From positions 1 to 64,000 of the forward strand of contig NZ_JAJVKW010000014.1 of assembly GCF_024198255.1 (NCBI RefSeq): DNA of 64,000 bases, written 5' to 3'. A program made the position numbers and the translations under genes. The DNA is from Myxococcus guangdongensis (GTDB taxonomy: Bacteria; Myxococcota; Myxococcia; Myxococcales; Myxococcaceae). This document shows, in pieces, positions 8,156 through 10,934 of this stretch. The notes below the pieces were generated by a model that was not told where the DNA came from, searched no databases, and saw nothing but the letters and a program-made list of their open reading frames with translations. Each line of letters starts with the position of its first letter. Within the stretch, counting starts at the first letter, position 1.

Positions 8156-10378
8156 TTACTTGTGCGACGCGATGAACGCGATGCCCTGGTAGCCACCCTT
8201 CGCGCCGTAGATCTCGATGTAGTACTTGCCGGCCGGCACGTTGATGAGGTTGCACACCTCGGACTGGTGCTCCTTCACGCTGCGGCAGTCGTAGTCGAAC
8301 TTCGTCGGCGCCGAGCCCAGCTTCACGTAGATGTCCGGGTTGCCCTCGCCCTCGCCCGTCTGGATGTACAGGCTGTTGATGCCGGAGCCAGGCTTACGCT
8401 CCGGAACCTCGATGGTGTACACGTTCGAGGAGCCCGCCGCGCCGGAGAGGTTCTTCAGCGCGATGCCGGACTGCACGGGCACGTAGCCACCCTTCCAGGT
8501 CACCGTCAGCGTCACGCCCGAGAAGGTGCTGTAGGCGTTGAGCATGATGACCCAGCGGCCGTTGGCCGGCGTGGCGAACGCGCAGGACTCGGCGTTGCCA
8601 GCGCGGTACGGACGGCAGTCGTACAGGCTGGTGGTGGGGACGTTGTTGTAGCGAACGTACAGGTCCGCGTCGCCCGTGCCGCCGGCGATGGAGACGTTCA
8701 GGTCGTACGCGCCCTCGGGCAGGTTGAACTCGTAGTACTTCTTCTGGCCGCTGGTGGAGCCGATGCCGGTGATGGGCACGTCCTTCTGCACGGGGGTCGT
8801 GTCCACGATGATGGGCACGCCCACGCCCACGGCCTTCCAGGCGTTGGTCACCGAGGCGATCTCAGCCGCGGTGTAGCCGAGCTGCGCGGCGGCCTGCTCG
8901 GTGGCGATCTTCGCGTCGTCGAACGTCGCGTCCGCCTCGAGGATCTCGTTGTTGGCCTTGTAGAAGATCTGCCCGGCCTTCTCGATGCCGATGCCCGTCA
9001 CGACGGTGGTGGTCTTGCCCGTCGGGTGCGTGCCACCCTGCGACAGCAGGTAGAACGCCAGGTTGGAGATACCCGAGCTGTAGTGCACGTCCACGCTGTC
9101 GTCGTAGTCGTGGAAGTAGTCGAGCGAGTCCCCGTCCTGCGTGGGGTTCGCCATGTAGCGCAGGGCGTCGTTCGGGATGTTCGGCGTCCACACGTCGTCA
9201 CCGACCAGCCACGTGCGCGCGCTGACGACGTTGCCGTCGCCGTACCACTCGCACACCGCGCCGAAGATGTCGGAGAAGGACTCGTTCAGACCACCCGACT
9301 GGTCGTCGTAGATGAGGTCGGAGGAGTACTCCGTCACGGCGTGCGTCAGCTCGTGCGCCGTCACGTCCAGCGAGTTGGCCAGGTTGCTGGCGTTCACGCC
9401 GTCGCCATCGCCGTACACCATCTGGGTGCCGTTCCAGAAGGCGTTCACGTACGCGACGCGGTGGTGGACCGTGCTGACCAGCGTGGCGCCGGCGTCGTCG
9501 AACGAGTCACGACCGAACAGCTCGCTGTAGCAGTCGTACACCGTGCCCAGGTGGTCGTAGTTCGTGTTGACGACCGGGTCGGCGACCTCGGGCTGACCCT
9601 CGGTGCGAACGACCGCGCCGGGGAGCGTCGTGGTGTTGTTGCCGTTGTGCATCCGGCGGGCCAGGCCCTCCTTGATCTGCGGGTGGCGGGCAATCACGTC
9701 GCCGTTGGTCGCGTTGACCAGGACGACATCGCGCACCGGCGTCCCGTCGCGGCGCTCACCCGTCTGGATGAGCTTGTAGACGAGCACCAGCTCGTCGCCG
9801 TCACGGAAGTAGACCAGCTCGTGGCCTTCCTCGATCTTCAGGCCGTCGAACGTGGAGCGGTCCGCCTGGAGGGCGTCCTTCGCCACCGACACGTCCACGC
9901 TCGCCTTGGCCGCGGCCTTCAGGTCGCTGCGGGTGTTGGTGGACGCCGCGATGACCTTGCCACCGCGCGTGGTCAGGCGCAGCTGGCCGTACAGCACGGG
10001 GATGTTGTTGACCTTCACGCCGTAGATGACGTGGCCGTCACCCTGGCGGTCCGTGAACGTCTTCTTCAGGACCAGGTCCGCCGCGTTCAGGTTCAGCTGG
10101 GGCGCGATGAGCGCCGCCACCGGAGCCAGATCCGCCTGACCGAGGGCCTTGAAGCCCGCGGCCGCCTGCGGTGCGGGGCCGAGGTCGCCGGTGATGAACC
10201 TGGCGACACCGGAGGAATCCGTAGCAACAACCTTCTTCCCGGTCAGCTGCAGGGCCGCCGCGCTCTTCGTCGCGGTGTCCTGGGGCTTGGCCTCGGGAGC
10301 AGGGGTGGACTCGTTGCAACCAACGAGGAAGGACAGCGCCGCTACACCAAGAACACCGCGTACTCGCTGATTCACCAT
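8156..10378 (-). CDS. M4-family (thermolysin-like) metalloprotease lipoprotein with two C-terminal PPC-like domains
   Basis: 740 residues. The start is fixed by a strong AGGAGG a few bases upstream (10385-10390) and a lipoprotein signal with lipobox LVGC (Cys21). Residues about 40-240 form an FTP/PepSY-type inhibitory propeptide. The catalytic domain carries the zinc motif HELTH (342-346, the HEXXH box) and the third ligand in GGLNESFSD (Glu366). After the catalytic domain (to about 525) come two beta-rich repeats of about 100 residues, each with a YDCR and SxxC pattern (YDCRPYRAGNAESC and YDCRSVKEHQSEVC), resembling pre-peptidase C-terminal domains that are often trimmed during secretion. 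The role is extracellular proteolysis, fitting a predatory or scavenging life. No partner genes are adjacent. Confidence 0.95.
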   Translation of the reverse strand: MVNQRVRGVLGVAALSFLVGCNESTPAPEAKPQDTATKSAAALQLTGKKVVATDSSGVARFITGDLGPAPQAAAGFKALGQADLAPVAALIAPQLNLNAADLVLKKTFTDRQGDGHVIYGVKVNNIPVLYGQLRLTTRGGKVIAASTNTRSDLKAAAKASVDVSVAKDALQADRSTFDGLKIEEGHELVYFRDGDELVLVYKLIQTGERRDGTPVRDVVLVNATNGDVIARHPQIKEGLARRMHNGNNTTTLPGAVVRTEGQPEVADPVVNTNYDHLGTVYDCYSELFGRDSFDDAGATLVSTVHHRVAYVNAFWNGTQMVYGDGDGVNASNLANSLDVTAHELTHAVTEYSSDLIYDDQSGGLNESFSDIFGAVCEWYGDGNVVSARTWLVGDDVWTPNIPNDALRYMANPTQDGDSLDYFHDYDDSVDVHYSSGISNLAFYLLSQGGTHPTGKTTTVVTGIGIEKAGQIFYKANNEILEADATFDDAKIATEQAAAQLGYTAAEIASVTNAWKAVGVGVPIIVDTTPVQKDVPITGIGSTSGQKKYYEFNLPEGAYDLNVSIAGGTGDADLYVRYNNVPTTSLYDCRPYRAGNAESCAFATPANGRWVIMLNAYSTFSGVTLTVTWKGGYVPVQSGIALKNLSGAAGSSNVYTIEVPERKPGSGINSLYIQTGEGEGNPDIYVKLGSAPTKFDYDCRSVKEHQSEVCNLINVPAGKYYIEIYGAKGGYQGIAFIASHK

Positions 10379-10680
10379 GTAATCCTCCTAAACGGAAAGA
10401 TTAGGAAGCACAGTGTCACAGGATGGTTGTGTATTTCAAGGTTGCGCGATAATTTTAGTAAGTCACTTATTCTTAAATTCCGAGCTTGAGCCAAAAGCCC
10501 CAGCCATTTCGGGAACTTATTGGAGCCCTACCCACGGCTTTTCCGGAACCGTACGACGTAGTGGGTAACCCCGGTGTGAACAGAATTCCGGAAAAAGTCG
10601 TGGCCAAAGTGGCCCTCACGAGGTCCGCGCGCGGAGCGCATTTCTCGCGGCATTTCCTGGGAATTTAGGGAGAGGAAATC
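10379..10680. other. AT-richer intergenic region with a long inverted repeat
   Basis: No gene is seen. The first ~100 bp is unusually AT-rich for this window and must hold the protease promoter. CACGGCTTTTCCGGAA (10533-10548) pairs with TTCCGGAAAAAGTCGTG (10586-10602) almost perfectly across a ~37-nt loop. TACCCAC and GTGGGTA lie nearby as a second inverted pair. The region could be a terminator, a structured RNA or the remnant of a small element beside the tRNA pieces. Confidence 0.45.
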
Positions 10681-10710
10681 CAGCGTCCGAGTGGCGCGGC
10701 CATGGTTTTC

Positions 10711-10789
10711 AGGCTCGTGCTCTACCGCTGAGCTATCTCCCGATTGAAGTCGGGAGAGCTGGACTCGAACCAGCGACCCCAAGCACCCA
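10711..10789 (-). tRNA. tRNA-Pro(TGG)-like sequence with halves in permuted order
   Basis: On the minus strand the 3' half comes first. It has anticodon-stem strand GCTTG (10784-10780), variable GGGTC, T arm GCTGG-TTCGAGT-CCAGC (10774-10758), acceptor strand TCTCCCG and A73 (10750). After a CTTCAAT spacer comes the 5' half: CGGGAGA (10742-10736), TA, D arm GCTC-AGCGGTA-GAGC, A26 and CGAGC (10717-10713). Joined in the normal order these give a 7/7 acceptor stem, a 5/5 T stem, a 4/4 D stem and an anticodon stem with one G-U pair. The loop CT + TGGGT gives anticodon TGG. C1-G72, A73, G35 and G36 agree with bacterial proline identity. It may be a permuted gene or the inner halves of two lost tandem tRNAs. 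Confidence 0.45.
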
Positions 10790-10934
10790 AGTGCGTGTCG
10801 GGCCACACCGGACGGACGCCGGAAATCCTCACGGTGGACGCGGCCTTCGGGACGAAGCTGACAGCGCTCCTCGCACCGAGTCGCTTTGCGGAAGCGGACG
10901 GGTGCGCGAGGCTGCCGTCCTGGGAGGAAGGCAC

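What the first reader, a model, noticed from the sequence alone, without database searches (positions are those of the whole stretch)
10680..10830. tRNA-Pro(TGG) halves arranged in circularly permuted order
On the minus strand a 3' tRNA half (10784-10750) comes before a 5' half (10742-10713), separated by only seven bases. Joined in normal order they form every stem: acceptor 7/7, D 4/4, T 5/5, anticodon 5 pairs with one G-U. The loop CT + TGGGT reads proline TGG, and C1-G72, A73, G35 and G36 match proline identity. The flanks GCGTCCG...GTGGC (10819-10802) and GCCAC.CGGACGC (10695-10683) are also complementary, as expected if a precursor brings its ends together. Permuted tRNA genes are known in some algae and one archaeon; I know of no bacterial case and no bacterial splicing endonuclease for it. 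The plainer alternative is the inner halves of two decayed tandem tRNAs.
Basis: partly seen in the sequence, partly recalled or inferred. Interest (0 to 1): 0.75.

Follow-up and report, generated by a model that had tools for sequence, protein, structure and literature searches.

The report
Y-RNA-like tRNA mimic in Myxococcus
The back-to-front tRNA is probably not a gene for a working tRNA but part of a conserved small RNA that imitates a tRNA, most likely the partner of a myxobacterial relative of the human Ro60 autoantigen that the standard family searches miss.

Summary
On the minus strand (10820-10682) a 3' tRNA half precedes a 5' half, and the joined halves fold as tRNA-Pro(TGG). The structure is conserved and covaries in 18 genomes, outer stem included. 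The reading as a permuted tRNA gene is not supported: normal tRNA-Pro genes (TGG, GGG, CGG) exist, no EndA splicing endonuclease was found, and sister RNAs carry other anticodons, other cut points, uncut tRNAs or no tRNA at all. The constant part is a basal stem. RNAs with this stem lie on the same strand, usually within 1.3 kb upstream, of a 587-aa HEAT-like plus vWA protein whose predicted fold matches Ro60 over its full length, although Pfam TROVE and NCBIfam miss it. RNA and protein occur together in 74 of 195 Myxococcota genomes; only 3 have one without the other. In two related genomes the orthologous locus still holds a ro60-like gene directly behind this RNA; in Myxococcus that gene is gone. 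Best reading: a Y-RNA-like RNA (YrlA-like tRNA mimic) of a divergent Ro60 RNP, acting in trans with the ro60-like gene on contig C15. Rfam YrlA matches only below its cut-off (33 against 69 bits). Expression and binding are untested. New variant of a known kind.

The parts
10682..10820 (-). Whole Y-RNA-like RNA (P1 to P1'); CM R1 match spans 10672-10826
   Evidence: 165.1 bits; the locus is one of the model's own seed sequences
10813..10820 (-). P1 5' strand GGCGTCCG of the basal stem
   Evidence: covariation; coordinates
10682..10689 (-). P1 3' strand CGGACGCT
10801..10809 (-). P2 5' strand GGTGTGGCC, followed by the conserved CNACACGC segment
10693..10701 (-). P2 3' strand GGCCGCGCC, followed by the conserved CACTCGG segment
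10785..10800 (-). CGACACGCACTTGGGT: conserved CNACACGC plus the GGG-containing segment read as the 3' part of the anticodon loop
10750..10784 (-). 3' tRNA half: anticodon stem 3' strand, variable loop, T arm, acceptor 3' strand, A73
10743..10749 (-). 7-nt loop CTTCAAT that closes the acceptor stem
10713..10742 (-). 5' tRNA half: acceptor 5' strand, D arm, anticodon stem 5' strand
8156..10378 (-). M4 (thermolysin-like) metallopeptidase gene downstream of the RNA; in the related genomes G141 and G144 a ro60-like gene follows the RNA instead

Best explanation
The locus encodes a Y-RNA-like noncoding RNA of about 140 nt. Its 5' and 3' ends form a basal stem (P1, internal loop, P2, then CNACACGC) that I infer binds a ring-shaped, highly diverged Ro60 protein. 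Its other end is a tRNA-Pro-like module in circularly permuted order, acceptor stem capped by a 7-nt loop. The module imitates a tRNA; I infer that it does not decode. It probably acts as Y RNAs are proposed to: holding or gating the Ro60-like ring, and presenting a tRNA shape to a tRNA-binding partner (a nuclease, PNPase or a tRNA-modifying enzyme), as tether or decoy. This copy is an orphan: it lies at a locus that in related genomes still carries a ro60-like gene right behind the RNA, and here it would act in trans with the ro60-like gene at G000:C15:31715-33475. Shown: conservation, covariation, co-occurrence, synteny, predicted fold. Inferred: transcription, protein binding, function.
For: Conserved, covarying RNA (96.9% paired, 11 pairs changed on both sides, 0/500 shuffles). 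The basal stem alone covaries over 69 sequences (14 of 17 pairs with changes on both sides). CM R1, built from type I RNAs only, finds full-length copies upstream on the same strand at about 46 of 64 loci of the protein (my count from the list), up to 6 in a row (L155, L156). In Myxococcota 76 of 195 genomes have the protein and 75 the RNA; 74 have both, 2 protein only, 1 RNA only, with matching absences inside single genera. The protein's model has Ro60/TROVE structures as its 11 best Foldseek hits (E 1.7e-8 to 7.8e-7, nearly full length) and aligns at Z about 15 over 420-440 residues. Profile comparison with four canonical TROVE proteins: probability 97%, E 5e-11, residues 195-582. In G141 and G144, syntenic with the window, the type I RNA lies 70-90 bp upstream of a second ro60-like gene. 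RF02553 YrlA hits the window RNA at 33.3 bits; R1 in turn finds the YrlA beside a canonical Ro60 gene in G043.
Against: No expression or binding data. RF02553 is below its gathering score, and the basal stem differs from the YrlA consensus. RF02553 and R1 both give weak hits on tandem true tRNAs, so weak mutual hits are partly tRNA similarity. Pfam TROVE and vWA_Ro60 do not hit the protein; a single-sequence profile comparison was weak; the model's pTM is 0.57. About 16-18 of the 64 protein loci show no RNA upstream with this model. The window copy itself is not next to a ro60 gene.
Confidence: 0.85

Rival explanations
1. A true circularly permuted tRNA-Pro(TGG) gene: RNase P and RNase Z open the 7-nt loop, the anticodon-loop ends are joined, and a decoding tRNA results.
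For: Joined halves pass ARAGORN as tRNA-Pro(tgg); C1-G72, A73, G35 and G36 are kept in all 18 homologues and the best match is a tRNA-Pro each time. RtcB ligase genes exist in the genome.
Against: Normal tRNA-Pro TGG, GGG and CGG genes are present. No EndA found. Sister RNAs with the same basal stem have unrelated anticodons, another cut point, an uncut tRNA or none. Conserved non-tRNA bases lie between the half and P2. Presence follows a Ro60-like protein.
Confidence: 0.05
2. Inner halves of two decayed tandem tRNA genes that happen to pair.
For: Tandem tRNAs do give weak hits with the same models (37 bits at best, partial model).
Against: Conserved across genera with compensatory changes in all stems except the invariant D stem, including the flanking basal stem; full-length 155-position matches of 40-175 bits upstream of one protein family.
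Confidence: 0.01
3. A structured RNA of a vWA/HEAT protein that is only Ro60-like in shape: an independent RNP that converged on the tRNA-mimic design, with no common origin with Ro60 and YrlA.
For: No Pfam TROVE hit, divergent basal-stem sequence, RF02553 below threshold.
Against: Full-length Ro60 fold match ranks above all other vWA proteins in Foldseek; profile comparison spans part of the helical region as well as vWA; RNA upstream of the protein gene and a permuted tRNA domain are both features of known rsr-yrl loci, and G043 shows the canonical pair in the same order of bacteria.
Confidence: 0.09

Closest known systems
YrlA, bacterial Y RNA (Rfam RF02553; Salmonella and Deinococcus Rsr systems)
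   Same: Modular RNA with a long basal stem from both ends and a permuted tRNA-like domain with D, T and acceptor arms; encoded near a Ro60 gene in related genomes (PMC8394870, PMC7790460).
   Different: 33.3 bits against a gathering score of 69; other conserved basal-stem sequence (CNACACGC / CACUCGG); tRNA module closely resembles a particular tRNA (proline); related copies have another permutation point, normal order, or no tRNA; up to six copies in a row; this copy is far from the protein gene.
Ro60 / Rsr (TROVE-domain proteins; Xenopus Ro 1yvp, human Ro60 9nep, Thermus phage phiLo 9l5y)
   Same: Predicted full-length fold, helical repeats plus C-terminal vWA with a DxSxS motif.
   Different: 12-14% sequence identity; missed by Pfam TROVE and vWA_Ro60 and by NCBIfam Rsr.
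Circularly permuted tRNA genes of algae and Thermofilum (PMC3978253, PMC3218864)
   Same: 3' half precedes 5' half, short spacer, complementary flanks.
   Different: No EndA found, decoding tRNA present elsewhere, part of a larger conserved RNA tied to a Ro60-like protein.

Membership tests
YrlA (RF02553) | Score above the family's gathering cut-off (69 bits) | tested here: not met
   33.3 bits for the window RNA; best in the genus 46.8
YrlA (RF02553) | Permuted tRNA-like domain with acceptor, D and T arms | tested here: met
YrlA (RF02553) | Long basal stem pairing the 5' and 3' ends | tested here: met
   P1 and P2 covary
YrlA (RF02553) | Basal-stem sequence of the Rfam consensus (GGCGAAUGC type) | tested here: not met
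   non-standard pairs in the RF02553 alignment; different conserved motif
bacterial Y RNAs | Encoded near a Ro60 gene | tested here: met
   For the RNA class. For this copy only through orthologous loci in G141 and G144; here the ro60-like gene is on another contig
bacterial Y RNAs | Binds Ro60/Rsr; tRNA-like domain modified by DusA/TruB | not testable with these tools
   needs biochemistry
Ro60/TROVE | Pfam TROVE or vWA_Ro60, or NCBIfam Rsr, above cut-off | tested here: not met
Ro60/TROVE | Helical ring plus vWA fold over the full length | tested here: met
   AlphaFold model
Ro60/TROVE | Sequence profile similarity to canonical members | tested here: met
   hhalign probability 97%, E 5e-11 over residues 195-582, dominated by vWA; weak against one sequence
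Circularly permuted tRNA gene | Joined halves make a standard tRNA | tested here: met
Circularly permuted tRNA gene | Splicing endonuclease (EndA) present | tested here: not met
   PF01974 absent from the genome
Circularly permuted tRNA gene | Mature, ligated and charged tRNA made from it | not testable with these tools
   needs small-RNA sequencing

The most novel reading that the evidence does not exclude
Myxobacteria use one Ro60-binding RNA platform to display a set of tRNA look-alikes of different isotypes and topologies, as decoys or sensors for tRNA-cutting enzymes; the window RNA is the proline-type decoy, kept after its own ro60 gene was lost.
Probability: 0.3. Interest if true: 0.8.

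Novelty: new variant of a known kind. Interest (0 to 1): 0.62.

Why it matters
It extends the Ro60/Y RNA system, linked in other species to RNA quality control, stress survival and lupus autoimmunity, to myxobacteria, where standard family searches miss both protein and RNA. It shows a natural series in which one binding stem carries permuted, normal and absent tRNA modules, so the question of what the tRNA part of a Y RNA is for becomes directly testable. It also warns that a permuted tRNA in a bacterium may be a Y-RNA-type mimic.

Tried and rejected
Ordinary tRNA or Rfam family in the window at standard thresholds: none. Permuted tRNA gene: see rivals. Decayed tandem tRNAs: refuted by covariation. 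Riboswitch or leader of the downstream peptidase: not favoured, because the RNA lies before a ro60-like gene at the orthologous loci and its relatives sit at several unrelated places. Pfam TROVE search gave nothing in the genome, which at first suggested a Y RNA without Ro60; neighbouring genes then led to the diverged protein. A ro60 remnant in the first 22 kb of the window: none (tblastn best E 2.4). Sigma-70 promoter scan: no site; one weak terminator-like site at 10614-10602, near chance. Papers on myxobacterial Y RNA or Ro60: none found in the held library; Chen et al. 2014 and the Wolin reviews are not held, so prior description of the myxobacterial system cannot be excluded.

Full report
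OBSERVATION. The minus strand of the window holds, from 10820 to 10682, P1 GGCGTCCG, P2 GGTGTGGCC, a 3' tRNA half, a 7-nt loop, a 5' tRNA half, P2' GGCCGCGCC and P1' CGGACGCT. Neither ARAGORN nor Rfam calls a tRNA there, but the halves joined in normal order are called tRNA-Pro(tgg).

CONSERVATION. A 141-nt DNA search in 61 related genomes found close homologues in 18. Their alignment supports every helix: 38 pairs, 96.9% paired, 11 pairs with changes on both sides, none of 500 shuffles as good. P1 and P2, outside the tRNA, covary as well as the tRNA stems; the D stem does not vary. Decay of two tandem tRNAs cannot give this.

KIND OF RNA. Rfam's YrlA model (Y RNA-like, the tRNA mimic bound by Ro60) matches the window RNA at 33.3 bits and relatives at up to 46.8, below its cut-off of 69. 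It also gives weak hits in control genomes, so this is a lead only. One genome of the same order, G043, has a YrlA at 65.1 bits beside a gene that Pfam recognises as TROVE/Ro60. Pfam TROVE itself is absent from the window's genome.

THE PROTEIN. The other RNAs of the family pointed to a partner. In all 27 Myxococcus genomes a sister RNA (type II) lies about 150-300 nt upstream, on the same strand, of a 587-aa protein with a C-terminal vWA domain. Pfam sees only vWA. Its AlphaFold model (32-row alignment, pLDDT 80, pTM 0.57) has Ro60/TROVE structures as its eleven best Foldseek hits, nearly full length, and aligns with Ro60 at Z about 15 over 420-440 residues. Single vWA domains score as high in Z but cover only that domain. 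A profile of four canonical TROVE proteins matches at 97% probability; one sequence alone did not. I call it Ro60-like.

LINK BETWEEN RNA AND PROTEIN. A covariance model from the 18 type I RNAs was run over 64 named loci of the protein. About 46 have one to six copies, on the protein's strand and upstream; a simple motif scan gives 45. Across 195 Myxococcota genomes 76 have the protein, 75 the RNA and 74 both; Fisher p = 2e-50, a figure that ignores relatedness. Single genera also split in step: in g33, G141-G143 have both and G137-G140 neither.

THE CONSTANT PART IS THE BASAL STEM. Over 69 copies P1 and P2 show 14 of 17 pairs with changes on both sides. The motifs CNACA(C/A)GC and CACUCGG are nearly constant, while the inserted module varies: tRNA cut in the anticodon loop (type I, as here), tRNA cut in the variable loop with an intact anticodon arm of varying sequence (type II), tRNA in normal order (L165, L167), or no tRNA (L122, L124, L127). 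Neighbouring copies at one locus resemble different tRNAs (L155: Gly, Arg, Ser, Glu), judged by best alignment to this genome's tRNAs. The type I module is consistently proline-like (18 of 18). The window's genome has four full-length copies: this one, C15:33624-33774, C15:42218-42376 and C10:386283-386432.

HISTORY OF THIS LOCUS. In G141 and G144 the type I RNA sits 70-90 bp upstream of a second ro60-like gene, and genes of the window at 2.8-6.8 kb follow in the same order. In the window a thermolysin-like peptidase follows the RNA and no ro60 remnant was found. The simplest history is that the second ro60-like gene was lost and its RNA kept.

WHY NOT A tRNA GENE. Normal tRNA-Pro genes for TGG, GGG and CGG are present, EndA was not found, and the family as a whole does not keep an anticodon or a cut point. 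RtcB ligases are present, so ligation is not excluded, only unsupported.

MECHANISM. From known Y RNAs, the basal stem holds the Ro60 ring and the tRNA-like module tethers PNPase and is read by tRNA-modifying enzymes (PMC8394870), or has been proposed to compete for an anticodon nuclease (PMC7790460). The same division of labour fits here: constant stem for the protein, variable tRNA module for the other partner. Protein binding, transcription and function are inferences. Whether the myxobacterial system has been described before could not be settled, because the key Y RNA papers are not in the library.

Noticed in passing
L155:3745-4974 and L156:3906-4941: Five to six tandem Y-RNA-like genes upstream of a ro60-like gene, whose tRNA modules resemble different isotypes (Glu, Gly, Ser, Leu, Arg).
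   Followed up: partly
L165:4814-4959 and L167:341-482: The same basal stem carries what looks like a tRNA in normal, unpermuted order.
   Followed up: no
L124:4868-4976, L127:4874-4982: Archangium copies keep the basal stem but have no tRNA-like module.
   Followed up: no
L016, L023 (next to the type I RNA): A further Y-RNA-like copy in tandem upstream of the type I RNA; also in G009, G033, G141 and G144.
   Followed up: partly
G000:C15:45983-47197: One of five RtcB ligase genes of the genome lies about 12 kb from the ro60-like gene and 3.6 kb from another Y-RNA-like copy; unrelated genes lie between.
   Followed up: partly
   Followed up: no
L072:7353-8054: A calcineurin-like phosphatase gene lies between two Y-RNA-like copies upstream of ro60 in Myxococcus.
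   Followed up: no
G134:C23:130735-130896: This genome has both a canonical TROVE protein and the diverged Ro60-like protein.
   Followed up: no
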